Shown piece after piece: positions 2,471 to 14,383 of a stretch of 64,000 nt of DNA (its first letter is position 1; each line of letters opens with the position of its first letter). The notes below the pieces were generated by a model, which worked only from the letters and a program-made list of their open reading frames with translations, was not told where the DNA came from and did no database searches. The stretch comes from Kineococcus rhizosphaerae. GTDB lineage: Bacteria > Actinomycetota > Actinomycetes > Actinomycetales > Kineococcaceae. A program made the position numbers and the translations under genes. The stretch spans positions 1-64,000 of the forward strand of contig NZ_PVZF01000004.1 of NCBI RefSeq assembly GCF_003002055.1, read 5' to 3'.

Positions 2471-2497
2471 ACGTCCGGTCATGTCGATGGCCGAGCG
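2471..2497 (+). repeat. Island repeat, degenerate copy
   Basis: Reads ACGTCCGGTCATGTCG and continues GATGGCCGAGCGC. It shares the GTC(A/C)CGGTCAT core of the island repeat family but has lost the CCCGCG block. It lies just after the histidine kinase and overlaps the ATG codons at 2481 and 2487, so these are poor candidates for a true start. Confidence 0.5.
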
Positions 2498-2552
2498 CTT
2501 GAGTCATGTCGTAAGGCCCCGTCCGGTCGTCGCTTCCTGCGATGGTGAGCTT

Positions 2553-2768
2553 GTGGAAGATGACGCTGCGCAGGCTCCTCGGACAGTCCGAGGATGGGTC
2601 GCCTTAGGAACCAGCAACCTCTTCGGCTACATCGTGACCGTACTGGTACTGCGCATCTGGGTGCCGTGGTCGGATGCGTTTCTATGGGCCCTCGTAGGCA
2701 TCGGAAGCGTGATGGGTGCAGCCACCTTCAACTACATCGACCGTCGCCGTCGACGGCGTGCGAACTGA
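2553..2768 (+). CDS. Small two-helix membrane protein
   Basis: A 71-residue protein of unknown function. After an acidic, polar N-terminus (VEDDAAQAPRT) there are two hydrophobic helices, roughly residues 20-38 (LFGYIVTVLVLRIWV) and 42-60 (FLWALVGIGSVMGAATF), then a very basic RRRRRR tail that should stay in the cytoplasm. I chose GTG 2553 because the in-frame ATG at 2481 lies inside a degenerate island repeat. The longer form would be 95 residues. It is one of several tiny membrane proteins scattered between repeats. No family recognised. Confidence 0.5.
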   Translation: MEDDAAQAPRTVRGWVALGTSNLFGYIVTVLVLRIWVPWSDAFLWALVGIGSVMGAATFNYIDRRRRRRAN

Positions 2769-2796
2769 GCTGAGGCCTGCAGCTAGCAGCGGACGG

Positions 2797-2825
2797 AACG
2801 TTCGGTCATGGCGTGGTGCGTGCGA
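2797..2825 (+). repeat. Island repeat, degenerate copy
   Basis: Reads GAACGTTCGGTCATGGCGTGGTGCGTGCG, with TCATGGCG where full copies have TCATCCCGCG. The trailing GTGCGTGCG matches the GTGCGCGC arm of full copies. It separates the two small membrane protein genes. Confidence 0.55.
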
Positions 2826-2887
2826 TGTGGACGTCAGACGACCCGGGCGGTCCTTGCAGTAGGACAGCGCGCCAGTGACCATGGATC

Positions 2888-3100
2888 ATGCGATCGACGA
2901 TGCGGGAGCTGGGGACAGAGTTGGCGTTCAGCCTGATCCTGGTTCTCATCGCGGAAGCGGTGATCCGTCTGCTCGGATGGGACCGCTTCTGGACCCTCGT
3001 CGTGGTCTTCACCATCGGACACGGCACCAGAGCAGGACTGACACGTCGACGGCGCGCGATCCTTGCCCGCGAAGACGAGAGTCGATCCGTGCTGCGTTAG
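2888..3100 (+). CDS. Small membrane protein, unknown function
   Basis: A 70-residue product with one long or two short hydrophobic segments: AFSLILVLIAEAVIRLL at about 13-29 and WTLVVVFTIGHG at about 35-46. A basic RRRRAIL stretch and polar tail follow. The start at 2888 (ATG) is plausible; ATG 2900 (MRELGTEL) is equally possible and would shorten it by four residues. No recognised family. The general plan resembles the neighbouring 2553-2768 product, but I see no clear sequence similarity. Coding status rests on the hydrophobicity pattern and lack of competing frames. Confidence 0.45.
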   Translation: MRSTMRELGTELAFSLILVLIAEAVIRLLGWDRFWTLVVVFTIGHGTRAGLTRRRRAILAREDESRSVLR

Positions 3101-3194
3101 CCGCAGCGTCGCGCATACCCCGCGTGGTTGGCGGAGTGGGCCTACGACCGCCCGATCGGTCAGATCACCGACGCGGCCTCGGTGCACCACGCGC

Positions 3195-3226
3195 GACGTC
3201 ACGGTCATCCCGCGATACGGGCGGTC
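3195..3226 (+). repeat. Island repeat, full copy
   Basis: Begins GACGTCACGGTCATCCCGCG, with the exact 12-base core GGTCATCCCGCG at 3203-3214, and continues ATACGGGCGGTC. A second-type copy (GACGTCGCGGTCCTG) follows 46 bases later. Confidence 0.85.
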
Positions 3227-3240
3227 CCGACCGGCCTAGC

Positions 3241-3291
3241 GACGTCGCGGTCCTGTAGAGGAGCGGGACGCTCGGTCATGGCGATCTGCGC
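3241..3291 (+). repeat. Island repeat, B-type copy followed by a degenerate copy
   Basis: GACGTCGCGGTCCTGTAG at 3241-3258 aligns directly to the full repeat but lacks CCCGCG. A second degenerate unit, GGGACGCTCGGTCATGGCG, ends near 3291. Together with the copy at 3195 this makes a tandem cluster just before the nucleotidyltransferase gene. Confidence 0.6.
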
Positions 3292-3373
3292 GAAATCCAC
3301 CTGCAGACGTCGGAGTCGGCGTGACAGCCTCAACCAACTCCGGCCGGCAGGATGAAGCAACCAGGAGGGGTGC

Positions 3374-4162
3374 ATGGACCTGCAACTGCCAGACCACCTC
3401 ACCGACGACCACCGACGGCTCATCGCCGACCTGGCCGAGCGCAACGACACCGAGCACGGCGACGGTCTGCTCGGTCTGGTCCTTTCCGGCTCCGCCGGCC
3501 GGGGCGTGGCCACCGACCGCTCCGACCTCGACGTCTACGTCGTCCTCAGCGACGACGCAGCCCAGCGCCGGTCGGCCACCCGTTCCACCACCATCGACGA
3601 GCTGCCGGTGACCTTGACCGACCTGGAACAGGTACCTGCCTTCGGGTCAGGAGGATGGTGGTTCCGCTGGTCCTTCGCTTGGGCCCCGACGCTGCTGGAC
3701 CGCACCGATGGCCGCATCCCCGCCGCCCTGCACCGCCAGGCCACCTTGACCCCTGATGAGGTTGAGGCCGTCCTGATGGAGCACAGCCGCCTGGACGGCT
3801 GGCTCAACTACGTCTATCGGGCGTTGAAGTCCGACCGTGACGGTCGCCGGCTGGAGTGCCGCCTGGATGCGGCGGAGTCGATGCCGTGGCTGCTCGACGT
3901 GATCTTCGCCCTCGCCGGACGGGTGCGGCCGTACCACAAGTACCTGCCGTGGGAGCTGCGCGAGCACCCGCTGCCGGACTGGCCCGCCGACGTGCTGCTG
4001 CCCTTGCTGCAACGGACCCTGGACGGCGATCCTGCCGCGCTGCGGGAGACCTTCGTGCGCGTCGAAGCCGGGTGCGCGGCCCACGACGCAGCCAGGGGCG
4101 ATCAACTCACGCGGGAGATCATCGACGGCTGGGGCGACGGGCTCTTACTGATGCGGCCCTGA
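3374..4162 (+). CDS. Nucleotidyltransferase-fold protein
   Basis: A 262-residue protein. The catalytic signature of the pol-beta-like nucleotidyltransferase superfamily is near the N-terminus: SGSAGRGVATDRSDLDVYVV, at about residues 36-55. It contains the GS motif and the paired Asp of DLD that bind metal. The remainder (about 90-262) is helical, with Trp/Tyr-rich segments such as LDGWLNYVYRALKSDRDG, resembling substrate-binding regions of aminoglycoside-type transferases. The substrate is unknown. A strong AGGAGG ribosome-binding site at 3362-3367 fixes the ATG start. It could modify a small molecule or act as an antitoxin-like transferase. Confidence 0.75.
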   Translation: MDLQLPDHLTDDHRRLIADLAERNDTEHGDGLLGLVLSGSAGRGVATDRSDLDVYVVLSDDAAQRRSATRSTTIDELPVTLTDLEQVPAFGSGGWWFRWSFAWAPTLLDRTDGRIPAALHRQATLTPDEVEAVLMEHSRLDGWLNYVYRALKSDRDGRRLECRLDAAESMPWLLDVIFALAGRVRPYHKYLPWELREHPLPDWPADVLLPLLQRTLDGDPAALRETFVRVEAGCAAHDAARGDQLTREIIDGWGDGLLLMRP

Positions 4163-4190
4163 CGACCGCCTGCTCCCCTAGGCCGGAGCA

Positions 4191-4218
4191 CACCGCGCGG
4201 TCATCCCGCGGTGCGGGG
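4191..4218 (+). repeat. Island repeat, full copy
   Basis: Exact core GGTCATCCCGCG at 4199-4210, preceded by CACCGCGC and followed by GTGCGGGG. It lies between the convergent nucleotidyltransferase (+) and GrpB-like (-) genes. Confidence 0.85.
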
Positions 4219-4222
4219 CAAG

Positions 4223-4759
4223 TCAGGCCAAAGGTCGCCACTGCCAGGCGCGCTCGATCATGGCGCCGACGAAGGGCGGCTTGGCGTCGACGTAGCGGTC
4301 TCGCTCGTGGGCGTGCTCGACGGCGAGGTCCTGCTTGAACGTGGCGTAGCGCAGTGCCTCGTCCGGGTGGGCCCGCAAGTAGTCGCGGAAGACGAGGTAC
4401 CGGGCCACCAAGGGCGAGGAGGCCGCCACGACGTGCAGGTGGTGGGTCCGCTTACCTGCCCGCAGACGGTGGAAGAACAGGTGCTGCGGGTCGTCCGCGA
4501 AGGACTCCGGGACATGCAGGTAGCCGATCCCGCAGAAGGCGGGGACTGCGGTGTGTAGTTGCTCATCGGATACGACGGTCAGCAGGTCGATGGTGGGCTT
4601 GGCCGGGAGGCCGGGGACGGCCGTCGAGCCGATGTGCTCGACGGCTTCCAGCGACGGGAGGGCGGCCAGAATCCGTGCCCGCTCGTTGGCGAATGCCTGC
4701 GGCCAGGACTCGTCGTAGGCGATGACCTCGACAGTGGCGTCCGGGCGTTCTTCGAGCAT
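4223..4759 (-). CDS. GrpB/UPF0157 family nucleotidyltransferase-like protein
   Basis: A 178-residue protein of the GrpB family, which is related to nucleotidyltransferases. It shows the family signature VEVIAYDESWPQAFANER near the N-terminus, then HIGSTAVPGLPAKPTIDL, where the GST and the later Asp form the nucleotidyltransferase-type site. Next comes RTHHLHVV, and the segment YLVFRDYLRAHPDEALRYATFK is typical of the C-terminal half. The start at 4759 (ATG) is preferred because GGAG lies eight bases upstream; a GTG at 4819 would add 20 residues but has no ribosome-binding site and borders a repeat. The physiological substrate of the family is not established. Confidence 0.88.
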   Translation of the reverse strand: MLEERPDATVEVIAYDESWPQAFANERARILAALPSLEAVEHIGSTAVPGLPAKPTIDLLTVVSDEQLHTAVPAFCGIGYLHVPESFADDPQHLFFHRLRAGKRTHHLHVVAASSPLVARYLVFRDYLRAHPDEALRYATFKQDLAVEHAHERDRYVDAKPPFVGAMIERAWQWRPLA

Positions 4760-4830
4760 CAGCGTGGTCTCCGTCTCGTTGCGGCGACTCTCGAACGTAC
4801 CCCGTGCCGTCGTCTCCACCTGCCGACCAA

Positions 4831-4936
4831 GCGCACGGTCATCCGCGACGGCGCGACGTCACGGTCATCCCGCGGTGCGCGCGGTCATCTCGCGAGCCAG
4901 GACGTCGTCGACCTCGCGGTCGTGCCGATGAGCAGG
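4831..4936 (+). repeat. Island repeat cluster (three units)
   Basis: Unit one (4831-4848) reads GCGCACGGTCATCCGCGACG, with one C deleted from the core. Unit two (4855-4898) is a full GACGTCACGGTCATCCCGCG followed by GTGCGCGCGGTCATCTCGCG, a partial internal duplication. Unit three (about 4910-4936) is a B-type copy, GACCTCGCGGTCGTGCCGAT. The cluster lies between the two minus-strand genes. Confidence 0.85.
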
Positions 4937-4961
4937 ACACCGACCAAGCGGGGTGAGGACA

Positions 4962-5555
4962 TCAGCTGGCCGCGGTCAGCGGCTCCCAACGGGCCGCGCC
5001 AGCAGCCACGTCGATCACGACCCGACCGAGCGGCTGCGTCGCTGCCTCCACCACGAAGTCCGGTCCACCACGACCGGCATCCGCACCCGGACGCCGGTCC
5101 AGGTACGGAGTGAGGGTGAAGACCACCTCACGCGCACCACTGGGCAACGGGTACGGCCCGTAGCTGCCCCGGGAGTACGGCTGCCCCGGCTCACCGGTGA
5201 TGCTGCCGCCACCGATGTTCCCCGCCTCCTGGACCTCCCGCGGCAGGGGCGGGTTGACCTCGTACTCCACGTCGGCGACCGGGCTGATGAACCACTGACC
5301 GGCGTCGGGATCGTCCTCGTGGACCGCCGGGGCGATCTCGTAGTCCAGCGACACCATCTGCCAAGGCCCACCTGCTTGCTCAGGTAGCCGGTTGCCTGCG
5401 GCGTCGGGCCAGTGGCCTTCGTCGCGCAGGCCCCGTAGGTGCAGGTGACGACCCGGGACGACCTCACCGCAGTCCACGTCGAAGGCCACCAGCAGCGTGC
5501 CCTGCTCGTTATCGCTCATGTCGTGAGCGTCGTGGATCGCCGCGACCGGGCGCAT
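4962..5555 (-). CDS. Hypothetical protein
   Basis: A 197-residue soluble protein of no recognised family, with no signal peptide. It is rich in Pro, Gly and acidic residues and has beta-rich stretches (TLLVAFDVDCGEVVPGRHLHL near the N-terminus, REVVFTLTPYLDRRPGAD and VVIDVAAGAARWEPL near the C-terminus), suggesting an all-beta domain. ATG 5555 is chosen because AGGGGG precedes it by seven bases; an upstream start at 5576 would add seven residues. Flanked on both sides by island repeats. Function unknown. Confidence 0.6.
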   Translation of the reverse strand: MRPVAAIHDAHDMSDNEQGTLLVAFDVDCGEVVPGRHLHLRGLRDEGHWPDAAGNRLPEQAGGPWQMVSLDYEIAPAVHEDDPDAGQWFISPVADVEYEVNPPLPREVQEAGNIGGGSITGEPGQPYSRGSYGPYPLPSGAREVVFTLTPYLDRRPGADAGRGGPDFVVEAATQPLGRVVIDVAAGAARWEPLTAAS

Positions 5556-5596
5556 CAGGGAACCCCCTGAGCGCACCCCGGGATCAAGGTCCCCAA

Positions 5597-5632
5597 CCGC
5601 ACGGTCATCCCGCGGCGCGCGCGTGGTCCGAC
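5597..5632 (+). repeat. Island repeat, full copy
   Basis: CCGCACGGTCATCCCGCG with the exact core at 5603-5614, followed by GCGCGCGCGTGG. It lies in the gap between divergently oriented hypothetical genes. Confidence 0.85.
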
Positions 5633-5682
5633 CGGGCGGCGCCTTGAGTGCGGGCTAGTCTCACTCCCGCACACTGGTGGGC

Positions 5683-6036
5683 ATGCAGGACTGGGGCGGC
5701 TACTCGCTCAAAGACGGAGAGCCGGACTACACCCCGGACGATCAGTTCTGGGACGGCACACGCGTGTACTCCCTAACCCACGACGACGTCCGCAAGCGAC
5801 AGGGCCGACTGCTCCACGAAGCCGAGGTCATGGTCCTGAACCTCCTCGACTGCACTCCCCACAGTCCCCGACTGGGCTCCAAGCACCTGCTCACCCAGTC
5901 CCAACGTCGCCAGATCGCCGAGGCCGGAACGGTGCGCTTCGTCGAACCGGAAGGATGCCTGCAGCGCTGGCAGAGCAGCGACGGCACAGTGCTGGCGCTG
6001 CTGGTCGGCGAGGTCCGCAGCCCCCGCCTGCACTGA
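5683..6036 (+). CDS. Hypothetical protein, paralogue of the 14384-14737 product
   Basis: A 117-residue soluble protein. Side by side with the product at 14384-14737 it is roughly 60 percent identical over the full length by eye. Shared blocks include GEP-YT-DD-FWDGTR, VMV-NLLDC-P, GSK, AG-VRFV, LQRW-S-DGTVLALL and RSPR. The start is ATG 5683, matching the paralogue, rather than GTG 5677. The conserved Trp, Tyr, Asp and Cys residues suggest a real folded domain, but I recognise no family. Two divergent copies at opposite ends of the repeat island suggest ancient duplication or repeated import. Confidence 0.75.
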   Translation: MQDWGGYSLKDGEPDYTPDDQFWDGTRVYSLTHDDVRKRQGRLLHEAEVMVLNLLDCTPHSPRLGSKHLLTQSQRRQIAEAGTVRFVEPEGCLQRWQSSDGTVLALLVGEVRSPRLH

Positions 6037-6072
6037 CTCCAGCCACCCCATACAGGCGGGGCCAACAGTCAC

Positions 6073-6132
6073 GACGTCACGGTCATCCCGCGGTGCGCGC
6101 TCGACGACCCCACGGCCTCGCCGAAGTGCGGG
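6073..6132 (+). repeat. Island repeat, full copy plus B-type copy
   Basis: GACGTCACGGTCATCCCGCG with the exact core at 6081-6092 and a GTGCGCGC tail, then a degenerate unit (GACCCCACGGCCTCGCCGAA and GTGCGGG) starting 33 bases later. It lies between the 117-residue paralogue and the DUF4304 gene. Confidence 0.8.
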
Positions 6133-6160
6133 TGATCAAGGTGCTGGACCAGAACGCCGC

Positions 6161-6703
6161 TCATGTCCGGGACGGCGCCGTCCAACTCCAGACCGGCGGC
6201 GCTGGGACCGGCTGCCCATCCAGACGGGCCTGCAACTGCGGCAGCACCACTTCGGCAACGATGTCGATCACCTCCGCAGCGACAGCATCGACACCCACGA
6301 CCTCGCCGCCATCAACAGCGCTGCCGCCGCCGGCGCCCCCTCCCTCCCCGTCGTCGCAGGCCTGCACGAGCCACCAGTGGTCGTGTCCGTCGGCGACCAG
6401 GGAGCCGACCCGCTGCCACCACCCCACCCCCGGAGTGTGCGCGTTGGCGTTGGGCGCATCGCCAATCCACGGTTGCACCACCTGCGCAGCCGCCCACTCC
6501 TGGGCACTGGTGAAGGAGACGTTGAGCGTGAAGGCGCAGCGTTGCGCGGTGTTCCACTTGTCGCGCTGGACCCCGATCAAGGCGTAGTGACCGGCGTCAT
6601 TGGGGAGTCGGAAAGCGTTGCCGGATCCGCGCAGGCCCATCCGCCGCCAGGCCGGGGCTACGTGCGCCTTCATCAGGTGCGCGAACAACGCTTGTGCATC
6701 CAC
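6161..6703 (-). CDS. DUF4304 family protein
   Basis: A 180-residue protein. The N-terminal two thirds fit the DUF4304 pattern: an opening helix MDAQALFAHLMKAHVAPAWR, then MGLRGSGNAFRL, then LIGVQRDKWNTAQRCAFTLN, with the aromatic/Asn residues typical of the family. The middle holds a Gly-rich linker (DDGEGGGAGGGSAVDGGE) at about residues 116-133. The C-terminal part (VIDIVAEVVLPQLQARLDG) is an amphipathic helix also common in the family. The biochemical function of DUF4304 is unknown. Flanked by repeats. Confidence 0.75.
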   Translation of the reverse strand: MDAQALFAHLMKAHVAPAWRRMGLRGSGNAFRLPNDAGHYALIGVQRDKWNTAQRCAFTLNVSFTSAQEWAAAQVVQPWIGDAPNANAHTPGVGWWQRVGSLVADGHDHWWLVQACDDGEGGGAGGGSAVDGGEVVGVDAVAAEVIDIVAEVVLPQLQARLDGQPVPAPPVWSWTAPSRT

Positions 6704-6820
6704 CGAGCCATCATCTGATCATCGATTAGGCCCAGCAGGGCTTTTGCGCTCATCGAAGATCCAGGACGCGGCTGGCCACCTGCCTTCACTACCCGGTCGC
6801 CGTCCACCGGGTGCCTCCGC

Positions 6821-6874
6821 GACATCGCGGTCACGGCGCCCGCAGGCAACGTCACGGTCATGCCGCGGGCCGCG
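6821..6874 (+). repeat. Island repeat, two degenerate units
   Basis: GACATCGCGGTCACGGCGCC at 6821-6840 (B-type) is followed by AACGTCACGGTCATGCCGCG at 6848-6867, one mismatch from the core. It lies between DUF4304 and the next plus-strand gene. Confidence 0.7.
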
Positions 6875-6952
6875 TGATGCGGCTTCCCGAGCTGGGACCC
6901 TTTTCGGTGACGGTCGGGGCAGGCCGTCCCCACCTTGGACGGAGAGCGAGCA

Positions 6953-7267
6953 GTGTCCAACTGGTCCTGGATTGAGTACCTAGACCGTCTATCAGACGGC
7001 GCCGTCGAGTACACCTACGACGGCTGGGCCAAGGCCAAGGACATGAAGGCGGCCGAGCATCACCAGCTCGTCGAGCTCGAAGAGGAGCACGCCGAACGGG
7101 ACGTCCACGTGACCGACCGACTGGACGACCTCATCGACGCCCGCGTCTTCCAGTACGGGGCCGACGAGCCCGTCGATCCTGCCAACGGCGCCAGCGGCAT
7201 CATCCACCGGTACATCCCGATGACGGGTGACGAGCCGCCCGTCGTGCTCATCAGCTGGAGGTGCTGA
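6953..7267 (+). CDS. Hypothetical protein
   Basis: A 104-residue soluble acidic protein of no recognised family. It begins MSNWSWIEYLDRLSDGAVEY, continues through a charged helical stretch rich in Glu, Asp and His (LVELEEEHAERDVHVTDRL) and ends PPVVLISWRC. GTG 6953 is preferred, with GGAG nine bases upstream; the upstream ATG at 6935 falls before that site. A full repeat follows directly after its stop. Confidence 0.6.
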   Translation: MSNWSWIEYLDRLSDGAVEYTYDGWAKAKDMKAAEHHQLVELEEEHAERDVHVTDRLDDLIDARVFQYGADEPVDPANGASGIIHRYIPMTGDEPPVVLISWRC

Positions 7268-7278
7268 AGGACGTCTAC

Positions 7279-7338
7279 AGACGTCACGGTCATCCCGCGG
7301 TGCGCGCGAAGCGCACGGTCATCCCGCGCTCAGTGCGC
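7279..7338 (+). repeat. Island repeat, two full copies in tandem
   Basis: Exact cores at 7288-7299 and 7317-7328. The second unit is a clean dyad: GCGCAC at 7311-7316 pairs with GTGCGC at 7333-7338. Its right arm contains the stop codon (7330-7332) and last codons of the minus-strand DUF2283 gene, so the repeat supplies coding sequence. Confidence 0.9.
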
Positions 7339-7569
7339 TTCCTCCGGTCGGTCAATGCGGCGCAGCGTCCGGATCAACGCGGGGTCCAAAGCAGCCGTCG
7401 CGCCCAGCACCTCAACTCCCAGCAGACGCCCGGCGGCGCTGAAGTCGAGAATCACCTCGTACTCCTTCGACCCGGTGTCCACGATGACTTGCTCCCAGGC
7501 CAGGTCGGTGCAGTCACCCCGAAGGTTGATGTAGGCCGCGTCAACCTCCGCGTCCCAGGTGCCGTCCAT
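7330..7569 (-). CDS. DUF2283 family protein
   Basis: A 79-residue protein matching the short DUF2283 family. The N-terminal AEVDAAYINLRGD corresponds to the family's D-x-AYI-L motif, and EVILDFSAAGRLLGVEVLGA to the core strand-turn-strand (V-D-d-G-ligiEil-a). Members are compact beta proteins of unknown role. The last codons and stop lie inside an island repeat, so the C-terminal Glu-Glu-Ala-His is repeat-derived. Confidence 0.8.
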   Translation of the reverse strand: MDGTWDAEVDAAYINLRGDCTDLAWEQVIVDTGSKEYEVILDFSAAGRLLGVEVLGATAALDPALIRTLRRIDRPEEAH

Positions 7570-7591
7570 GGCCCTAGCTTGCCGCCACCGA

Positions 7592-7620
7592 CCTTCCGGT
7601 CATCCCGCGCACCGCGCCAC
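7592..7620 (+). repeat. Island repeat, full copy
   Basis: CCTTCCGGTCATCCCGCG with the exact core at 7598-7609, followed by CACCGCGCC. It lies immediately upstream of the DUF2283 start (minus strand). Confidence 0.8.
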
Positions 7621-7702
7621 CGCGGGCAGAGACAGCACCGCTGGGTCGTCCTAGGTATCTCTTCCAGCACGGGGCCCTCACCAGTCGGTAGGCCGCGCTG
7701 CC

Positions 7703-7801
7703 TCAGCCCCCGCTTGTCACGATGGCGTAGATCCCAAAGGCCCACAGCCCCACAAACGCGGGGATGGCGACCTTCAACAGGACACGTCCTCGACGAGACA
7801 C
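7703..7801 (-). CDS. 32-residue single-helix membrane peptide
   Basis: A very short gene with a textbook ribosome-binding site: AGGAGG lies five bases before the GTG start at 7801. The product is MSRRGRVLLKVAIPAFVGLW followed by AFGIYAIVTSGG: a basic N-terminus, one hydrophobic helix of about 20 residues, and a short polar tail. This is the plan of a small membrane-spanning peptide, possibly a regulatory peptide or a type I toxin-like product. No homologue is recognised; the call rests on the ribosome-binding site and helix alone. Confidence 0.5.
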   Translation of the reverse strand: MSRRGRVLLKVAIPAFVGLWAFGIYAIVTSGG

Positions 7802-7895
7802 TGACGCCTCCTGCTCATCACCTCAATGATTCAGCTTGACCTGTCCATCCTGCCTAGACCTCCCGCCATCTCACGCGCGATCAGCCAATCTGCAT

Positions 7896-8590: not shown

Positions 8591-9274
8591 TCAGCGCAGG
8601 AAGCGCTCCGAGACCGCCAGCATGGTGACGGCGTGACCGGCCCGGTCGAGGAGTTCCGCGAAGGCGGCCCGGTCGGCGTCCACGCCGTCCTGGAACGCCG
8701 TCAGGGTCGGCCACCACAGCTGACGGACGCCGAGGAACGGGGCGCCGTCGCTGTGCACCTGCGCGCTCGGCCGGTTCACCGCATGGCGCAGCGCACCGAT
8801 CCGCAAGCCCAGCTCGGCGTCGTCTGCGCCGGTCCAGTCGGGGTTGCCGTCCTGGTGCACGAACTGCAGGAGGTGGATGCTCGTCGGCCGTTCCAGCACG
8901 TCCCACTGCCGATCAGCTGGGGTGAGGGCTCCGATAGCGGGCCGGGAGACGATCACTTCCTCTTCGGTGATGAAGAAGATGACCCTCGACAGGTCTTGGA
9001 ACAGCGGCTCGTCGGGGCGGATGGTATCGACGAACAGGGGCTCGTCGACCAGCGTGGCGGCGTCGGCCGCGGAGTCGAACGAGGGCATGGCGACCCCGTC
9101 GTACTCGTCCTGGCCCGGGCCGAGGCGGTCGGTGTCGAACTGGTGCGCCTGGACGTAGGTGAGCATGCCCGGGATCTGGCGACCCAAGGTGCCGTGCGGG
9201 TGGCGCCAGTGGTCGTGGAAGCGCTGGCGGTCGATGTCGGGGCGACGGGGGATGAGGGAGAAGAAGCGGATCAC
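8591..9274 (-). CDS. EthD-domain-like protein
   Basis: A 227-residue cytoplasmic protein with two ferredoxin-like (dimeric alpha-beta barrel) halves. The first is an EthD-type domain (VIRFFSLIPRRPDIDRQRFH, DHWRHPHG, with the conserved F-x-DHW-x-HG pattern). The second repeats the theme (LHLLQFVHQ to AFAELLDRAGHAVTMLAVSE). EthD proteins act in small-molecule catabolism, often as accessory or cyclising factors. GTG 9274 is chosen, with AGGA six bases upstream. It lies downstream of the SDR gene on the same strand, so the two probably form an operon divergent from the MerR regulator. Confidence 0.72.
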   Translation of the reverse strand: MIRFFSLIPRRPDIDRQRFHDHWRHPHGTLGRQIPGMLTYVQAHQFDTDRLGPGQDEYDGVAMPSFDSAADAATLVDEPLFVDTIRPDEPLFQDLSRVIFFITEEEVIVSRPAIGALTPADRQWDVLERPTSIHLLQFVHQDGNPDWTGADDAELGLRIGALRHAVNRPSAQVHSDGAPFLGVRQLWWPTLTAFQDGVDADRAAFAELLDRAGHAVTMLAVSERFLR

Positions 9275-9443
9275 GAAATGTCCTCGGTCGGGTTGATCGG
9301 ACAGATGCTGGGCAGCGTCAGGGCGGGCGGGGTCCGCTTGTGGGCGCGGTGGTGCATGCACCAGCCGAAGGCTGGGTGGATGACGTCCGGCGCGCCGTAG
9401 TCCGGTGGAGCCGTCCAGCCGGGGCTGTTGTCGCGCGGGGCAG

Positions 9444-10136
9444 TTAGAGGCTCAGGGTCGTCGGAGGGCCGGACAGTGCGGCCTTGGCGCGGCGGGCGAA
9501 GTCGTCGGCCACGACCTCGATCTCCCCAGCCGCCAGGCCGTCGAGCACGGTGGTCACGAACTCTCGAGCGCTGATCTTGGGGAAGTCCCATCCCGCGCTC
9601 ATGTCGGTGTCGACCAGGCCCACGTGGGCGCCTAGGACTTGGGTGCCCTGCTCGGCGAGCTCGACCCGGAAGGCATTGTTGAGGTTCCAGGCGGCGGCCT
9701 TGCTCACCGAGTAGGCGGCGTTGCCGGGCACCGCGTACCAGGAGGCGGCGGACAGCACCGTGACGATGGCGCCGCCCCCGTTGCGGCCCAGCGCCGGGGC
9801 GAGAGCGCGGGTCACCTGGAGCATGCCGAAGACGTTGGTCTCGACGTCCTGCCGGATGGTGTCGAGGTCTCCGGTGAGCACCGGCGTCACCGTGGCGATA
9901 CCGGCGTTGTTGATCAGCAGGTCGACATCGGGAGCCGCCTGGACCGCGGCCTGGATGCTGGCGGCATCGGTGACGTCCAACGCGAGCGGTACGGCTGCCT
10001 CGACGTCGACAGAGTGGGGATTGCGGGCGGTGGCGTAGACCCGGCGGGCACCGCGGTCCAGCAACTGGCGGGTGAACTCCCGGCCCAGGCCACGGTTGGC
10101 GCCAGTGACGAGTGCAGTGGCGTTTTCGATCTCCAT
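9444..10136 (-). CDS. Short-chain dehydrogenase/reductase
   Basis: A 230-residue classical SDR. It has the NAD(P)-binding glycine motif TGANRGLG near residue 10, the NNAG motif, a catalytic Ser in VLSAASWYAV, and the Tyr/Lys pair of AYSVSKAA. The start ATG 10136 gives the typical N-terminus MEIENATALVTGANRGLGRE. The gene is transcribed away from the MerR regulator at 10213, with a 76-base gap holding two inverted repeats, and is followed by the EthD gene. Its substrate is unknown; MerR control suggests induction by a reactive compound. Confidence 0.9.
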   Translation of the reverse strand: MEIENATALVTGANRGLGREFTRQLLDRGARRVYATARNPHSVDVEAAVPLALDVTDAASIQAAVQAAPDVDLLINNAGIATVTPVLTGDLDTIRQDVETNVFGMLQVTRALAPALGRNGGGAIVTVLSAASWYAVPGNAAYSVSKAAAWNLNNAFRVELAEQGTQVLGAHVGLVDTDMSAGWDFPKISAREFVTTVLDGLAAGEIEVVADDFARRAKAALSGPPTTLSL

Positions 10137-10212
10137 GGCACGAACGTAGGATCTGACACACATGTCAATTTCAACTGCCGCACGTGAGACGTGCGTCACG
10201 AAGGCGGTGGGT
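10137..10212. promoter_or_regulatory. Divergent promoter with two perfect inverted repeats
   Basis: The gap between the SDR and MerR genes contains TGACA-CACA-TGTCA (10154-10167) and GCACGT-GAG-ACGTGC (10180-10194), both perfect dyads. On the minus strand the first dyad overlaps a TTGACA -35-like box (TTGACA at the 3' edge of the dyad), a fitting place for a MerR-family operator controlling the SDR. The second dyad may be an autoregulatory site. Promoter assignment is inference. Confidence 0.55.
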
Positions 10213-10566
10213 ATGCGGATCGGCGAACTGTCTCGGCTGACCGGGGTGAGCCCCAGGTCGCTGCGCTGGTACGGCGAGCAGTCGCTGCTGAGCGAAACGC
10301 GCACCAGTGGGGGGCACCGGGAGTACGACGAGGACGCGGTGGAGCGGGTCCGAACCATCCAGGTGCTGTTCGCCGCCGGCGTCCCCGCCCGGCACATGGC
10401 GGGGATGCTGCCATGCATCTACACCGGGACGACATGCCCCGCCACGCTCGAGCGGCTGGAGGAGGAGCGGATCCGGCTGCGGGCGCAGGCCGCAGGGCTC
10501 GCCGCCACCCTCGAGCGCCTCGATGAGGTGGTCGTGCAGGCACGCGCCCTGCTCACAACGGTCTGA
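10213..10566 (+). CDS. MerR family transcriptional regulator
   Basis: A 117-residue regulator. The N-terminal winged helix-turn-helix is classical: MRIGELSRLTGVSPRSLRWY, then a GGHREYDEDAVERVRTIQVL segment. A coiled-coil dimerisation helix (LERLEEERIRLRAQAAGLAATLERL) fills the C-terminus. ATG 10213 is chosen as the start because the domain begins there; an upstream ATG at 10162 overlaps the TGACA dyad. One Cys pair occurs (MLPCIYTGTTCP), which could sense redox or metals, but it is not a known site. It is likely to control the divergent SDR-EthD genes. Confidence 0.88.
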   Translation: MRIGELSRLTGVSPRSLRWYGEQSLLSETRTSGGHREYDEDAVERVRTIQVLFAAGVPARHMAGMLPCIYTGTTCPATLERLEEERIRLRAQAAGLAATLERLDEVVVQARALLTTV

Positions 10567-11026
10567 GGCCCGGAGCCGCAACCGTCCATCGTGTCGTCGA
10601 CGGGGATGCGGCTGTGCACAGTCCCGCTGGTCATCGCCGTGAGCGCGGTTAGCAGACCGGCGCGATCACCCTCCTGCTCCTGCTGGATGAGACCCCCCGC
10701 GCCAGCTGCAGGATCAGCCACTCCAGGCCAGTCGAACGCGTTTTACGGTTCCTGGTTTCACTATGGCTTCGCCGGGGTACCTCAAACCTGCGGAAGCCAC
10801 AGCTCAAGCCACGGCTCAAGCTGCGGCGTCCGTAGGCTGGTCCGCTCAAACAGAGAGGTGGACTGGCTGCACATCGCGATGGGGCGGCTGGGGCACACCC
10901 TCAAGGGGTGCGGTCAAGGTCCCCCGTCGCAGGAGCTTGCCCGTCTTACGCCGGTAGCGGGTGGCGCGACCTCCCCTCCACCGGGTCCTTGCTCACTTTC
11001 GGGACCCTGTCCGCCGTCGGCGCTGA
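10567..11026. other. Gene-free stretch
   Basis: About 460 bases between the MerR gene and the MmyB-like fragment. I find no convincing gene, no repeat of the island family and no RNA gene. It holds a short direct repeat (AGCTCAAGCC / GGCTCAAGC near 10800) and a 5-base stem (CACCC-TCAAG-GGGTG near 10900). The base composition is less GC-biased than the neighbouring genes, as expected for decayed or imported DNA. Confidence 0.4.
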
Positions 11027-11367
11027 TCAGCGTTGCCCGCTGTCGGTACCGACCAGCACTGCTCGCAGCCGCTGCTCATCGACGCTGCCCACCGCCGCGG
11101 AGAAGACGGCGATGTGCAGGTCCGAGTCGCGCGTGGACAACACATCGATGTCGAGACTGACCTGCCCCTAGGGGCGTCGACGACAACGACTCCCCCACCC
11201 ACCTGCCCCACAACAGCAGGACCGCCCCACAAGCGCGCGAACCGATCGCTCACCCAGCTCAGCTGCTCGATCATCGACGCCAAGTCCACATCGTGCGGAT
11301 AGCGCGTCAGCGCCCGTTTGAGGTCTGCGACCAAGAACGCGTCGCTGTAGTCGAAGCGCACGGTCAT
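11027..11367 (-). pseudogene. Frameshifted fragment of an MmyB-type (XRE regulator C-terminal) domain
   Basis: Frame one starts at the repeat and reads DLKRALTRYPHDVDLASMIE then QLSWVSDRFARLWGG, matching the ligand-binding domain found after the helix-turn-helix in XRE/MmyB regulators (pattern L...HPDD..L..LV.ELS..S..F..LW). Similarity then jumps to another frame, VSLDIDVLSTRDSDLHIAVF, ending at a TGA at 11027-11029. The helix-turn-helix domain is missing, and the first codons (ATGACCGTGCGC) are the island repeat itself. This looks like a gene truncated at the repeat and then frameshifted. A sequencing error at the frameshift is possible. Confidence 0.6.
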
Positions 11368-11380
11368 CCCGCGGACCGGC
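11356..11380 (+). repeat. Island repeat, full copy
   Basis: GCGCACGGTCATCCCGCG with the exact core at 11362-11373. It overlaps the apparent start of the truncated MmyB-like gene on the minus strand. Confidence 0.85.
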
Positions 11381-11422
11381 GACTGTCACTCCCGCCAAAG
11401 TCGCGTCAAAGAGCGACGCGGT

Positions 11423-11484
11423 GCCGCGCATGGTCATCCCCCCGCCCGCGCGCTCACCCCGCCGATCTCGCGCATCTGACGATG
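11423..11484 (+). repeat. Island repeat, two degenerate units
   Basis: GCGCATGGTCATCCCCCCGC (about 11426-11445) has lost CGCG. It is followed by a B-type unit, GATCTCGCGCATCTGACGAT, from about 11463. Confidence 0.55.
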
Positions 11485-11602
11485 GCCGCGCAGTACGCGC
11501 TGCCATCGCCGAGCCGTTGTCGTAGGCGAGCGGATGAGCAGCGGAAGAGCGAGCGAACCAGCGGAGCGCGACCTCGACACCGACACCCTGACCGAAGACT
11601 CG

Positions 11603-11947
11603 TCAACCGGCGGACTCGTCCAGCAGTCGCAGCGTGTGAGCCGCCTCCTCACGGGCGCGACGCAGTGCGGGGTCGTCCAGCAGCTGCTCCACAGGCGCAC
11701 GTTGATCGATCGCAGCAGTGATCGAATCCAGGCGTCGCAAGCTGGCGGCCAGGTCGTCGTCAGAACCGACGTCGCCTTTGTCCAATGCGTACGTGAGCCC
11801 GCTGTCGTCGAAGATGGAACACAAGCACTCCTCCAGCGACGACATGACGTCATCGCCACCTGAGTTGGTCCACACCCGACGTTGGAAGGCTTCATCGCTG
11901 AGTTCAAGCAGTCCCTCTCGGAGCACTTCGATGTTCACTCTCAGCAT
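11603..11947 (-). CDS. Hypothetical acidic protein
   Basis: A 114-residue acidic protein, mostly helical: MLRVNIEVLREGLLELSDEA, then FQRRVWTNSGGDDVMSSLEE, and near the C-terminus LLDDPALRRAREEAAHTLRL. The pattern, opening with VNIEVLREGLLELSDE-x-FQRRVW, is one I associate with uncharacterised actinobacterial proteins of similar length; this is from memory and not verified. ATG 11947 is chosen; the longer frame back to 12052 would begin in a repeat. Function unknown. Confidence 0.6.
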   Translation of the reverse strand: MLRVNIEVLREGLLELSDEAFQRRVWTNSGGDDVMSSLEECLCSIFDDSGLTYALDKGDVGSDDDLAASLRRLDSITAAIDQRAPVEQLLDDPALRRAREEAAHTLRLLDESAG

Positions 11948-12031
11948 GGACTCACAGTGCCGTGTGTCTGTGGCGGTCGCTCGAGAACGGAGATCCAGCT
12001 CGGCACAGTGCGCGATAGCACTGACCGGCCG

Positions 12032-12068
12032 AAACGTCCGGTCATCCCGCACTCAGTGCGCGATCGCG
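12032..12068 (+). repeat. Island repeat, near-full copy
   Basis: AACGTCCGGTCATCCCGCAC, one mismatch in the 12-base core (12040-12051), followed by TCAGTGCGCGATCGCG. The CTCAGTGCGC arm matches the copy at 7317. Confidence 0.8.
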
Positions 12069-12168
12069 CTCCGTACGTCCCGACGTGCCGAGAAGCGGCC
12101 GCAGTTGCAGCCTCGAGGGGCACCCTTGCCAGGTGAGGCAAGAGCCAGGACCGAGGGACACGCGGCTG

Positions 12169-12330
12169 ATGCTGCTCGCCCTGGTGCCCGTCGTGGGGGC
12201 GGTCGTCCTGATGTTCTTGACCCACGGCGATCCGACAGGCTGGCGAACGGTGGTCCTCTGCCTGCTGGCGGTGGCAGCGGTAGGAGTGCTCCTGGTCGAC
12301 GACTTCCGGCGACGCCCGGAGCAGGGCTGA
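12169..12330 (+). CDS. Tiny two-helix membrane protein
   Basis: A 53-residue product from ATG 12169, or 65 residues from GTG 12133. The hydrophobic segments are MLLALVPVVGAVVLMFL and WRTVVLCLLAVAAVGVLLV, separated by THGDPTG; the tail DDFRRRPEQG is charged. GAGGGA lies about ten bases before ATG 12169. Same general design as the products at 2553 and 8051, without obvious identity. Unknown function. Confidence 0.45.
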   Translation: MLLALVPVVGAVVLMFLTHGDPTGWRTVVLCLLAVAAVGVLLVDDFRRRPEQG

Positions 12331-12355
12331 ACCGCACCGGCCACCACCGCGCGTC

Positions 12356-12390
12356 ACGTGCATCCGGTCATCCCGCGATCCGGGCCGTCG
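12356..12390 (+). repeat. Island repeat, full copy
   Basis: CGTGCATCCGGTCATCCCGCG with the exact core at 12366-12377, followed by ATCCGGGCCGTC. It separates the tiny membrane protein (+) from the P-loop protein (-). Confidence 0.8.
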
Positions 12391-12429
12391 TGAGCAGTCA
12401 GTGGTGCCCTCCCCTCGAGGTGAGCACGT

Positions 12430-12984
12430 TCACGGCCGGGACAGACCGCACCAGCCGGAGAAGCCGATGACGTCGGCGGCCACCTCGACGACGCTGCGCC
12501 CGTCGGTGTGGACGCGGTAGGTGCCGGCGGGTGCCCGCTGTTCAAGCAGGGTGGCCATGCTCCGGCTGCGCTCGAGGTGGGCCTGCAGCCCGGAGCCGAC
12601 CTCGCGAACACCGAGGCGGGTGCGGGTCGTCTCGTCGCTGGCGGTGAGCAGGACACCTGTCACCTCCGCCCGGCCGCCGACGGCGCGGACGATGAGGTCG
12701 GGTTCGAGGACGCTGACGGTGTTGACGTAGACGAGGCGGTGGTGGCCGCTGGCGGCGTAGTTCGCCCACAGTGCGGCGAGGTTGGCTTCGGTGAGTCGAG
12801 TGCCGGCCGGGTCGTCGTCGGCTTTGGGGTAGGCGGCGTCGAGGTTGTCCCCTTCGACGTGACAGTGCGCGATGCCCAGGGTCTGCAGCTGAGCGGAGAC
12901 CTCGTAGGCGGTGCTGGTCTTGCCCACACCTGCCCGGCCACCGATGAGCAGCACCTGCACTGCCTCGCCGTTCGCTTCCGCCAC
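12430..12984 (-). CDS. P-loop kinase-like ATPase
   Basis: A 184-residue P-loop NTPase. The Walker A motif GGRAGVGKTS lies at about residues 15-24, after the strand VQVLLI. A conserved acidic/aromatic segment CHVEGDNLDAAYPKADDD resembles the DNLD-type substrate site of small-molecule kinases (gluconate and adenylylsulfate kinase-like). The Arg-containing segment LTASDETTRTRLGVREVGSG may form the lid. The GTG start is at 12984. It probably phosphorylates a small molecule; the substrate cannot be told. Confidence 0.7.
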   Translation of the reverse strand: MAEANGEAVQVLLIGGRAGVGKTSTAYEVSAQLQTLGIAHCHVEGDNLDAAYPKADDDPAGTRLTEANLAALWANYAASGHHRLVYVNTVSVLEPDLIVRAVGGRAEVTGVLLTASDETTRTRLGVREVGSGLQAHLERSRSMATLLEQRAPAGTYRVHTDGRSVVEVAADVIGFSGWCGLSRP

Positions 12985-13034
12985 GACGCACAGTCGGCCA
13001 TGGACTGCTGGCGCTGTCCACCACTCCCTGCGGC

Positions 13035-13061
13035 GAGGACTTCACGGTCATCCCGTGAACC
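13035..13061 (+). repeat. Island repeat, near-full copy
   Basis: GAGGACTTCACGGTCATCCC followed by GTGAACC, one mismatch in the 12-base core at 13046-13057. It lies just upstream of the alpha/beta hydrolase gene. Confidence 0.75.
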
Positions 13062-13108
13062 AGGACGTTGAAGGAGTGCGGCAGGTGAGTCCCTGCCAGG
13101 GTGCGAGC

Positions 13109-14077
13109 ATGACGCGGCGGCCCCTCAACCCCCTCTTCTGGACCCTGGCCCAGATCGGCTCCCGGGTACGCTCCTCAGCTCCTGCCGGGGTGGAAGACCC
13201 ACCCCTGCAGCTACCGGACCCCACGACGCTGCGCGTACCGACCCGCCACGGCGACGTCGATGTGCTGGTCCAACGCCCGGCCCAGCCTCAGAGCTGGACG
13301 TCGAAGCACCCGCCGGTCGTCGTGCACCTGCACGGCGGTGGGTTCGTCAACCGCAACCCCGCCCAAGACCGCCACATCGCCCGACACCTGGCCGCCCACC
13401 TGGGCGCCGTCGTACTCCTGCCGGACTACGACACCGCCCCCACCGTGCACTACCCCGTCGCCGAGGAAGAAGCCGTCGACGTCGTCGACTGGGCCACGGC
13501 CGCAGGCGAGGAGCACGGCTGGGACGGGCAGCGTCTGGTCCTGTCCGGGGTCAGCGCCGGCGCCAAGCTGAGCCTCAACACCTGCCAGCAACTGCACCAG
13601 GCCGGACGACCACGTCCACTGGCCGCCGTCCTGGTCGTACCGGTGACCGACGCGGTGCGCACCGACCGGACCTCACCCACTGCGCGCCCAGCGATCAGCC
13701 CCCTGGTCCAGCGCTTCGTCGGCTGGGCCTACTTCCCCGACACCGCACGACGGCGCGAACCCCTGGCCTCACCGCGACTGGATCCCTCCCTGAGCGAGGC
13801 CATGCCCCCCACCTTGGTGCTCACCGCCGAACACGACACCTTGGCCACCGAAGGAGGCGAACTGGCCGACGTGCTGCGCGCCGGCGACGTCGAGGTGGTC
13901 CACCACCAGTACCCCGGCGTCGACCACGGCTTCATCGGCGACGACACAGCGTTGGCGACGGTCCGCGATGCCTTGGAACGGATGGTCACGTTCTTTCGGC
14001 CCCACCTGGGCGAGCCGGACGCCGGCGAGAACACCACGACCAGGCAGACACCGCCCGCTGCCGCCAGCGACAGCTGA
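13109..14077 (+). CDS. Alpha/beta hydrolase (HSL/fold-3 esterase family)
   Basis: A 322-residue esterase of the hormone-sensitive-lipase group. The oxyanion-hole motif HGGGF lies at about residue 74, the nucleophile serine in SGVSAGAKL (GxSxG form GVSAG, where most relatives have GDSAG), the acid in LTAEHDTL and the catalytic His in GVDHGFI. The C-terminal 25 residues (GENTTTRQTPPAAASDS) are a disordered Thr/Pro-rich tail. The start is ATG 13109. It probably hydrolyses short-chain esters in the cytoplasm; no signal peptide is seen. Confidence 0.85.
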   Translation: MTRRPLNPLFWTLAQIGSRVRSSAPAGVEDPPLQLPDPTTLRVPTRHGDVDVLVQRPAQPQSWTSKHPPVVVHLHGGGFVNRNPAQDRHIARHLAAHLGAVVLLPDYDTAPTVHYPVAEEEAVDVVDWATAAGEEHGWDGQRLVLSGVSAGAKLSLNTCQQLHQAGRPRPLAAVLVVPVTDAVRTDRTSPTARPAISPLVQRFVGWAYFPDTARRREPLASPRLDPSLSEAMPPTLVLTAEHDTLATEGGELADVLRAGDVEVVHHQYPGVDHGFIGDDTALATVRDALERMVTFFRPHLGEPDAGENTTTRQTPPAAASDS

Positions 14078-14383
14078 GCAGGAGCCCGTTCTGGCTCGAC
14101 CCCAAACCAGTCCTCTCGGGACAGGTCAGCCACAGCCCGACAGTGATCACCAAGGGCGACGTCACGCTCACGGCGATGTCGTGGTGTCGACCCGTTCGCC
14201 CCTCGAGCACCGTCAGCCGTCGCGCTGTGCAGGAACTCTGCACAGCTCGTCCGATGGCACAGTCATCCCGCTGGTCGCGTGCGTGGGGTCGTGCCGCCGG
14301 CCCGATGCCGAGAGCGACCTCGGATCACCCGCTCGGTCGGAAGTCGCTGGCGGGGCTGAGGAACCACAGGACATGCTGCTGCG
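14078..14383. other. Gene-free stretch at the right edge of the island
   Basis: About 306 bases between the hydrolase and the paralogue gene. It contains two degenerate island repeats, GACGTCACGCTCACGGCGAT from 14158 and GGCACAGTCATCCCGCTGGT at 14256-14275. I see no coding frame I can support and no RNA gene. To the right of this stretch no further repeats occur. Confidence 0.5.

What the first reader, a model, noticed from the sequence alone, without database searches (positions are those of the whole stretch)
2471..14283. A one-orientation dispersed repeat family confined to a 12 kb island
The 12-base core GGTCATCCCGCG occurs exactly 12 times (3203, 4199, 4863, 5603, 6081, 7288, 7317, 7598, 7930, 8237, 11362, 12366), and at least 8 degenerate relatives are present. 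All are on the plus strand, whatever the direction of neighbouring genes, and nearly all lie between genes. I found none in the remaining 50 kb. Fuller copies read GACGTCACGGTCATCCCGCG followed by GTGCGC, and some form a GCGCAC/GTGCGC dyad. A B-type relative (GACNTCGCGGTCNTGCCG) follows a full copy at 45-55 bases in four places. Fixed orientation with mixed gene direction suggests a recombination or insertion signal rather than a terminator.
Basis: seen in the sequence. Interest (0 to 1): 0.85.

Follow-up and report, generated by a model that had tools for sequence, protein, structure and literature searches.

The report
Non-integron gene-cassette arrays in Kineococcus
The repeats are the joints of a large array of interchangeable gene cassettes in a soil actinomycete, which looks and apparently works like an integron but is built from different joints and, probably, a different enzyme.

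Summary
GGTCATCCCGCG is the core of a ~31-bp asymmetric site. A position-weight model finds 20 sites at 2804-14261 of the window (one of them B-type), all plus strand, none inside a predicted gene. The genus is Kineococcus. The island is one of many arrays: 775 sites in 1.31 Mb of chosen loci (reversed control 5), 689 of 696 neighbouring pairs in one orientation. Between sites lie mostly single genes (median spacing 594 bp). In 87 pairs of homologous segments with unrelated flanks on both sides (56 families), the inner arms stay with the segment and the outer arms do not. This places the exchange inside GGTCATCCCGC, the signature of conservative site-specific recombination: these are mobile gene cassettes. 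No IntI passes its cut-off in 11 genomes. Best enzyme candidate: an Xer-like simple tyrosine recombinase that in Kineococcus was seen only beside these sites, with a variant site after its stop codon in 10 of 10 copies whose 3' end is held, two degenerate. It is not found in 5 of 11 genomes, the window's own included, so the enzyme is inferred. Related sites occur in other genera.

The parts
2794..2824 (+). site, spacer variant TCATGGCG
   Evidence: 12.9 bits
3193..3223 (+). site (exact core 3203)
   Evidence: 38.0 bits; B-like copy at core ~3249 visible
3374..4162 (+). cassette gene, nucleotidyltransferase-like (weak NTP_transf_2, below cut-off)
   Evidence: homologous segment 3273-4162 = L069 4414-5305 at 84%
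4189..4219 (+). site (exact core 4199)
   Evidence: 26.3 bits
4223..4819 (-). cassette gene, GrpB family
   Evidence: PF04229 5.5e-47
4853..4883 (+). site (exact core 4863)
   Evidence: 40.7 bits
4873..4903 (+). site (core 4883, GGTCATCTCGC)
   Evidence: 14.6 bits
4910..4928 (+). B-type site, core 4918, 35 nt after core 4883
4962..5555 (-). cassette gene, no Pfam family
5593..5623 (+). site (exact core 5603)
   Evidence: 34.6 bits
5683..6036 (+). cassette gene, 117 aa, no Pfam family; paralogue of 14384-14737
   Evidence: L097 80% over 5664-6086
6071..6101 (+). site (exact core 6081)
   Evidence: 40.2 bits
6846..6876 (+). site (core 6856, GGTCATGCCGC)
   Evidence: 30.8 bits
6953..7267 (+). cassette gene, 104 aa, no Pfam family
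7278..7308 (+). site (exact core 7288), first of a 29-bp tandem pair
   Evidence: 39.2 bits
7307..7337 (+). site (exact core 7317), second of the pair
   Evidence: 32.4 bits
7330..7569 (-). cassette gene, 79 aa, no NCBIfam family
   Evidence: segment 7316-7610 = L085 at 83%
7588..7618 (+). site (exact core 7598)
   Evidence: 28.2 bits
7894..7924 (+). site (core 7904, GGTCATACCGC), 26-bp tandem pair
   Evidence: 26.6 bits
7920..7950 (+). site (exact core 7930)
   Evidence: 32.8 bits
7967..7985 (+). B-type site, core 7975, 45 nt after core 7930
   Evidence: 16.0 bits
8227..8257 (+). site (exact core 8237)
   Evidence: 36.7 bits
8273..8291 (+). B-type site, core 8281, 44 nt after core 8237
8591..10566 (.). 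multi-gene stretch in the longest interval (8237-11362): EthD-domain gene, short-chain dehydrogenase, MerR regulator
11352..11382 (+). site (exact core 11362)
   Evidence: 23.4 bits
12030..12060 (+). site (core 12040)
   Evidence: 25.6 bits
12356..12386 (+). site (exact core 12366)
   Evidence: 25.6 bits
12430..12984 (-). cassette gene, P-loop kinase-like (weak AAA_18, below cut-off)
   Evidence: segment 12369-13068 = L041 8561-9261 at 88%
13036..13066 (+). site (core 13046, GGTCATCCCGT)
   Evidence: 23.2 bits
13262..14077 (+). cassette gene, hormone-sensitive-lipase-like hydrolase (below family cut-offs)
14251..14281 (+). site (core 14261, AGTCATCCCGC), last of the array
   Evidence: 19.1 bits
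14384..14737 (+). last cassette-like gene, paralogue of 5683-6036; no site of 12 bits or more after it in the window
   Evidence: segment 14312-14767 = L085 at 93% and, over 14257-14767, L070 at 85%

Best explanation
The repeats are recombination sites that bound mobile gene cassettes. Each site has a left arm, a nearly invariant asymmetric core (CGGTCATCCCGC) and a right arm; the arms are partly inverted copies of each other, in a layout of about 11-8-11. A cassette is the DNA from the core of one site to the core of the next, so it owns the right arm at its start and the left arm at its end. Exchange inside the core excises a cassette, presumably as a circle with one complete site, and inserts it at another site. 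The asymmetric spacer forces one orientation, so arrays grow head to tail whatever the direction of the gene carried. Shown by sequence: the site family, its uniform orientation within arrays, the cassette structure, cassettes in unrelated contexts, and exchange confined to the core. Inferred: the circle intermediate; the class of enzyme (a tyrosine recombinase); and the particular enzyme, an Xer-like simple tyrosine recombinase (P0001 family) seen in the arrays of six Kineococcus genomes (a remnant in G001, contig-cut pieces in G007), with an attI-like B-type site at its 3' end.
For: Arm-swap test: 87 homologous pairs with both flanks unrelated. Taking one pair per family (56 families), identity is 0.69 for the upstream right arm and 0.76 for the downstream left arm (random 0.48, 0.52; p<0.001). 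The two outer arms are at 0.50 and 0.54 (random 0.52, 0.51; p 0.67, 0.12). 15 of 37 within-genome pairs are at least 97% identical, so movement was recent. Homology ends fall at sites (422 of 1624 ends, query and subject counted apart; null 2.2%). Neighbouring sites agree in orientation 689:7, genes in arrays are mixed 281:227, and 5 of 756 sites lie in genes against 1888 of 3780 random points. Cassette G+C is 0.687 (0.682 in G000) against 0.734-0.756 in three G000 stretches. Enzyme: the 12 Kineococcus copies or pieces of P0001 each have a site in the same orientation within about 1.2 kb. A B-type site follows the stop codon in 10 of 10 copies whose 3' end is held (two degenerate), with divergence straight after its core; 9 of the 10 match the left-arm pattern that 46 of 1051 array-locus genes match within 40 nt. 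P0001 aligns with XerD through R, K, HxxR, H and Y (catalytic positions recalled). Relatives in two other families, G146 (69%, a fragment) and G042 (71%), also lie beside same-orientation sites. Spacer types TCATCCCG and TCATGGCG cluster in G001 (24 of 36 neighbours agree, 17.6 expected, p=0.024), as an enzyme needing spacer identity would give.
Against: P0001 is not found at E<=1e-60 in 5 of 11 genus genomes (G000, G003-G006), including G005, whose cassettes moved recently; none of the 8 PF00589 proteins of G000 or the 3 of G005 is of its family. Either those arrays are orphaned or another enzyme acts. P0001 could be a hitch-hiking cassette gene. Its copies share descent, so 10 of 10 is not ten independent events, and the left-arm pattern used for the background was written after seeing them. 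The G042 copy has no B-type site. More distant relatives (43-46%) in G119 and G128 have no such sites near them. The arm dyad is imperfect (per-pair complementarity 0.06-0.95, no shuffled control). The spacer result is weak. No circle or excision product was seen. The weight matrix was trained on part of the loci that it then scored. The structure model of P0001 failed (mean pLDDT 35).
Confidence: 0.8

Rival explanations
1. True integron or CALIN: the sites are divergent attC hairpins recombined as folded single strands by an IntI.
For: Same architecture: short cassettes, one orientation, an integrase with an adjacent att-like site in some genomes, orphan arrays in others. Site windows fold 1.3-1.8 kcal/mol better than mononucleotide shuffles, mid-cassette windows only 0.1-0.2; one of five window sites folds well (z -3.1).
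Against: TIGR02249 reaches its cut-off in 0 of 11 genomes; P0001 scores 54 bits of 265 needed. In 88-nt windows composite and plain sites have mean z -0.35 and -0.23 only. Conservation ends at the ~31-bp site, without a GTTRRRY core (attC consensus recalled). Rfam finds nothing in 2400-14900. [quoted passage not shown]
Confidence: 0.05
2. Same cassette mechanism but run by the host XerC/XerD, like the dif modules of Acinetobacter plasmids; the 11-8-11 sites are dif-like. It differs from the best explanation only in the enzyme.
For: A strong Xer-like protein matched in all 11 genomes (three seen by sequence; named XerD from recall). The K. radiotolerans paper lists two XerC/XerD loci, Krad_3139 and Krad_1691 (PMC2587704, passage). 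The site layout resembles dif (recalled). P0001 itself is Xer-like.
Against: dif modules alternate inversely oriented pdif sites (PMC13141974, passages), whereas here 689 of 696 neighbours are direct. The GC-rich core does not resemble an AT-rich dif (recalled; no dif was located here). I first counted XerC as missing from G005 by PF00589; the paper's two loci make that unsafe, so I withdraw it and raise this rival from 0.15 to 0.18.
Confidence: 0.18
3. Homologous or illegitimate recombination between dispersed 31-bp repeats, with no dedicated recombinase.
For: Tandem 26-29-bp runs could arise by slippage; several genomes lack P0001.
Against: Near-identical 0.4-1.3-kb cassettes sit between unrelated flanks on both sides with the exchange inside 12 bp, repeatedly; uniform orientation and avoidance of genes are unexplained.
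Confidence: 0.07
4. Terminators, replication-polarity signals (KOPS-like) or REP-type elements.
For: Intergenic position, fixed orientation, small hairpins.
Against: Orientation differs between arrays of one chromosome (G009, G005) and ignores gene direction; sites cluster in arrays; arms swap with cassettes. Terminator function was not tested.
Confidence: 0.03

Closest known systems
Integrons, sedentary chromosomal integrons and CALINs
   Same: Long one-orientation arrays of short, mostly single-gene cassettes, one site each; accessory functions (APH, GNAT, immunity-like, unknown); integrase-less arrays are common
   Different: No IntI over cut-off; ~31-bp site with exchange inside a nearly invariant 12-bp core and only modest folding; arrays scattered over the chromosome; genes in either direction (281:227)
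dif modules (pdif, XerC/XerD) of Acinetobacter plasmids
   Same: Small gene modules bounded by short sites of about 30 bp; Xer-like enzyme class
   Different: pdif sites alternate in orientation and modules come in C/D pairs; here nearly all direct, chromosomal, with up to about 200 exact cores per genome (G009)
Simple tyrosine recombinases of actinobacterial phages (Brujita-like, IntBrujita subgroup)
   Same: P0001 has a SAM-like and a catalytic domain only; of the listed phage matches the best are Arthrobacter phage integrases at 45.7% (one record in the 60-80% band was not listed)
   Different: Here the gene sits among gene cassettes, not in a phage; membership of IntBrujita itself was not tested

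Membership tests
Integron | IntI integrase (TIGR02249 over cut-off) | tested here: not met
   0 of 11 genus genomes; P0001 54 of 265 bits
Integron | attC sites: long imperfect hairpin with R'/R'' boxes | tested here: inconclusive
   modest extra folding, near shuffle level in others; no conserved boxes beyond the ~31-bp site; the dedicated attC covariance model was not available
Integron | array of directly oriented cassettes, mostly one gene and one site each | tested here: met
Integron | cassettes move by exchange at one defined point of the site | tested here: met
   localised to 12 bp by arm swap
Integron | attI site next to the integrase gene | tested here: inconclusive
   B-type site after the stop codon in 10 of 10 Kineococcus copies with 3' end held (two degenerate), not in G042; insertion at it not shown
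dif modules | sites in alternating inverse orientation | tested here: not met
   689 direct, 7 inverse neighbours
dif modules | recombined by host XerC and XerD | not testable with these tools
   needs mutants or purified proteins
Serine-recombinase system | a resolvase or serine integrase in every array-bearing genome | tested here: not met
   PF00239 in 5 of 11 genomes, not in G000 or G002
Tyrosine recombinase (P0001) | catalytic R, K, HxxR, H, Y | tested here: met
   alignment with XerD 1a0p; PF00589 2e-26

The most novel reading that the evidence does not exclude
A third, separately evolved gene-capture platform beside integrons and dif modules: an arm-less phage-type tyrosine recombinase with its own attI (the B-type site directly after the int stop codon), two spacer-defined site classes, and genome-wide cassette arrays, native to several families of one actinobacterial order, in a phylum in which integrons are almost absent.
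Probability: 0.48. Interest if true: 0.93.

Novelty: new variant of a known kind. Interest (0 to 1): 0.86.

Why it matters
Integrons are the widely known system that stockpiles exchangeable single-gene cassettes in long ordered arrays, and Actinobacteria are reported to lack complete ones (PMC9024848, passages). A second array system on different sites would show that cassette stockpiling evolved more than once. It would explain many accessory genes in Kineococcus, including the radiation-resistant K. radiotolerans, and might give a simple double-strand recombination toolkit. It also makes a clean question testable: does cassette capture need folded single-strand sites, or only a short asymmetric core and an arm-less recombinase?

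Tried and rejected
attC-like folding: modest at best. Own-end pairing (left with right arm of the same cassette): 4.33 against 4.29 at random, no signal. Replichore polarity: looked likely from the first G005 and G009 positions, then failed in the fuller (still capped at 100) lists, because arrays on one side differ. A conserved 337-aa tyrosine-recombinase homologue with Cys in place of the catalytic Tyr (L105, L108, L109, L118) was considered as the enzyme and rejected: it looks vertically inherited, has a 56% relative in the sister genus G011, and was not found at E<=1e-40 in array-bearing G001 or in G003 and G007. Serine recombinases: not universal. IMG/VR: strict pattern 0 hits; the looser pattern 3 contigs, one site each, two of them inside the same predicted gene, taken as chance. 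Plasmids: only two Pseudonocardia plasmids with about 40% relatives of P0001. Structure prediction of P0001 failed (pLDDT 35), so no fold search was made. Left out: tyrosine recombinases outside G000, G005 and the fetched loci were not classified by sequence; the hits of G173 (2 and 5 against control 0 and 1), G003 (4 and 1 against 0 and 1) and most of G042 (3 and 2 against 1 and 0) were not followed up. At threshold 14 the relaxed matrix found 0 sites in the four G146 loci and 1 in the three G042 loci (control 1 in L197); the G146 sites were seen by pattern only.
Full report
WHAT WAS CHECKED. A logo of 300 sites from the window and 32 loci shows a ~31-bp site: left arm (C)GAC[GTC]TCAC, core GGTCATCCCGC, right arm G-GTGCGCGCG or variants such as TTGTGCGCG, ATCCGGGCG and CTCAGTGCG. 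A weight matrix trained on 276 of these finds 775 sites of 12 bits or more in 1,305,682 bases (window plus 72 loci), against 5 in the same DNA read backwards. The loci were mostly chosen because they hold cores, so this is no genome-wide density. In the window it finds 20 sites from 2804 to 14261, all + (the one at 7975 is B-type).

WHERE IT LIVES. The window is contig C4:1-64000 of a 5.61-Mb genome in 63 contigs. Two named GTDB records carry a strict form of the site; both are Kineococcus, and one, the 32,457-bp contig of K. vitellinus T13, has the length of contig G010:C44. G005 has contigs of 4,761,183 and 12,917 bp, as K. radiotolerans SRS30216 should (PMC2587704, abstract opening in listing). 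All 11 genus genomes searched hold exact cores, 7 to 151 each, against 0-2 for the reversed pattern; some single cores lie in coding frames by chance. The densest stretch listed has 61 cores (CGGTCATCCCGC) in 47 kb (G009:C1:39.2-86.5 kb).

ANATOMY. Neighbouring sites 20-6000 bp apart agree in orientation in 689 cases and disagree in 7. Different arrays of one chromosome may point either way (lists capped at 100). Between sites lie mostly single genes (692 intervals, median 594 bp; 143 of 692 are under 35 bp, 139 of them 26-29-bp tandem units, many GTGCGC-loop-GCGCAC). Genes run with the sites in 281 cases and against in 227; 5 of 756 sites lie inside predicted genes against 1888 of 3780 random points (own gene caller, loci with at least four sites). 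Cassette G+C is 0.687 (0.682 in G000) against 0.734-0.756 in three G000 stretches. Of 90 array proteins from seven loci, the commonest Pfam families were APH (6), GNAT (up to 4), then WapI-like immunity, glyoxalase, sigma-70 and transposases (2 each); 62 families in all, 25 shown. The window's own cassettes carry a nucleotidyltransferase-like protein, GrpB, a kinase-like protein, a hydrolase, an EthD/SDR/MerR group and unknowns.

THE TEST THAT DECIDES. If sites are recombination points, a cassette found in two places should bring its own inner arms but not the outer ones. 90 pairs of homologous whole cassettes (at least 75% identity over more than 80% of length) were found, 87 with unrelated flanks on both sides; these are 126 cassettes in 56 families, 37 pairs within one genome, 15 of those at least 97% identical. 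Identity switches on inside the core at the upstream site and off inside the core at the downstream site. With one pair per family: outer left arm 0.50, inner right arm 0.69, inner left arm 0.76, outer right arm 0.54; random 0.52, 0.48, 0.52, 0.51; p = 0.67, <0.001, <0.001, 0.12. The exchange lies between offsets -1 and +10. Of 1624 homology ends of 200 bp or more, 422 fall at -10..+22 of a core; random placement gives 2.2%. One family among the 56 is a transposable element with at least two tyrosine recombinases in G009 that lies against sites.

HOW IT PROBABLY WORKS. Arms at -9..+1 and 10..20 are partial inverted copies around an asymmetric 8-bp spacer TCATCCCG (618 sites; complementarity 0.95, 0.60, 0.54, 0.52, 0.50, 0.48, 0.48 at seven of 11 pairs, 0.06-0.32 at four; no shuffled control). 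This is the layout of a tyrosine-recombinase core site (recalled). In G001 a second spacer, TCATGGCG, is about as common, and neighbours agree in spacer in 24 of 36 cases (17.6 expected, p = 0.024). Single-strand folding is modest: site windows gain 1.3-1.8 kcal/mol over mononucleotide shuffles against 0.1-0.2 for mid-cassette windows, while 88-nt windows give mean z -0.35 (57 composite) and -0.23 (80 of 555 plain), and five window sites z +0.9, -3.1, -0.8, -1.8, +1.2.

THE ENZYME. No protein passes the IntI cut-off in 11 genomes; serine recombinases are in 5 of 11. One tyrosine recombinase, P0001 (315 aa, L092:6788-7732:-), recurs inside arrays: G002, G007 (pieces cut by contig ends), G008, G009, G010 at E<=1e-60 (5 of 11) and a 65-aa remnant in G001. 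All 12 Kineococcus copies or pieces have a site in the same orientation within about 1.2 kb. After the stop codon 10 of 10 copies whose 3' end is held have a B-type site (about CCGACTTCAC[GT]C[AT]TCTGNCGA; degenerate in L099 and L156), and sequences diverge right after ...CGA; by a left-arm pattern written after seeing them, 9 of these 10 and 46 of 1051 array-locus genes match within 40 nt. That is what an attI would look like. P0001 aligns with XerD through the catalytic residues. Among NCBIfam models the general Xer one scores best (129 bits, below its cut-off of 279). The best listed phage matches are Arthrobacter phage integrases at 45.7% (110 records in all). [quoted passage not shown] The weak point is plain: G000, G003, G004, G005 and G006 have no P0001 at that threshold, though G005 cassettes moved recently; and relatives at 43-46% in G119 and G128 have no such sites nearby.

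B-TYPE SITES. 51 were found by a fixed pattern, 49 on the array strand; 36 of 51 lie 35-47 nt after a full core, nearly all at 35 or 45-47. A looser pattern over 775 sites, which counts one base later, gives 10 at 36 and 42 at 46-48. The two classes differ by about one helical turn. Meaning unknown; candidates are a second spacer class, an accessory binding site, or scars of the integrase end.

BEYOND THE GENUS. With spacer left open, in loci chosen for a pattern match, G006 (same genus) has 26 sites in three loci, uniform within each; the sister genus G011 has 20 in eight loci, all +; G015 of another family has 5 in one locus, all minus; controls 0. G146, of another family, has four same-strand sites around its P0001-like fragment. 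Of 18 genomes tried by pattern, most others were near control level; G173 was not followed up.

LITERATURE. Nine searches of the held open-access library showed no title or abstract opening describing cassette arrays of this kind in Kineococcus or Actinobacteria. The K. radiotolerans genome paper has no occurrence of repeat, integron or cassette (word search of its main text). Subscription papers and preprints were mostly not searchable.

Noticed in passing
L109 5489-6502 (G000), L105, L108, L118: A conserved tyrosine-recombinase homologue, in a similar gene neighbourhood in the four genomes seen, has Cys where relatives have the catalytic Tyr (LAACVRE against LTQYVRE); function unknown.
   Followed up: partly
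51 positions, e.g. window 4918, 7975, 8281: B-type sites lie mostly at 35 or 45-47 nt after full sites, about one helical turn apart.
   Followed up: partly
L045 11783-12323 (G001): A run of 21 site copies at 27-bp period with the TCATGGCG spacer, in effect cassettes without genes.
   Followed up: no
L036 2559-5142, L065 9450-12002, L071 6426-8991, L075 12801-15366 (G009): A transposable element with at least two tyrosine recombinases, in near-identical copies, lies directly against cassette sites.
   Followed up: no
L034 7590-8876 and relatives in G009 and G004: A class II aminoacyl-tRNA synthetase gene (about 429 aa) is carried in cassettes.
   Followed up: no
16 array positions in G001, G002, G004, G005, G009: A sigma-70-type (by eye ECF) gene family is, with 16 members inside arrays, as common there as the tyrosine recombinases.
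   Followed up: no
G005:C2: 96 of the 100 listed cores (103 in all) lie within about 0.62 Mb of a contig end; the genome paper calls this chromosome linear, so arrays may be subterminal.
   Followed up: no
L099 and L160, upstream of the integrase; L092, L098, L035, L052: By eye, a similar gene (DVQELLxAPRLxPYxQATGGDL...) lies before the integrase in G008 and G001; a VFVDETK-type gene accompanies it in G002, G008 and G009 and occurs without it in G004.
   Followed up: no
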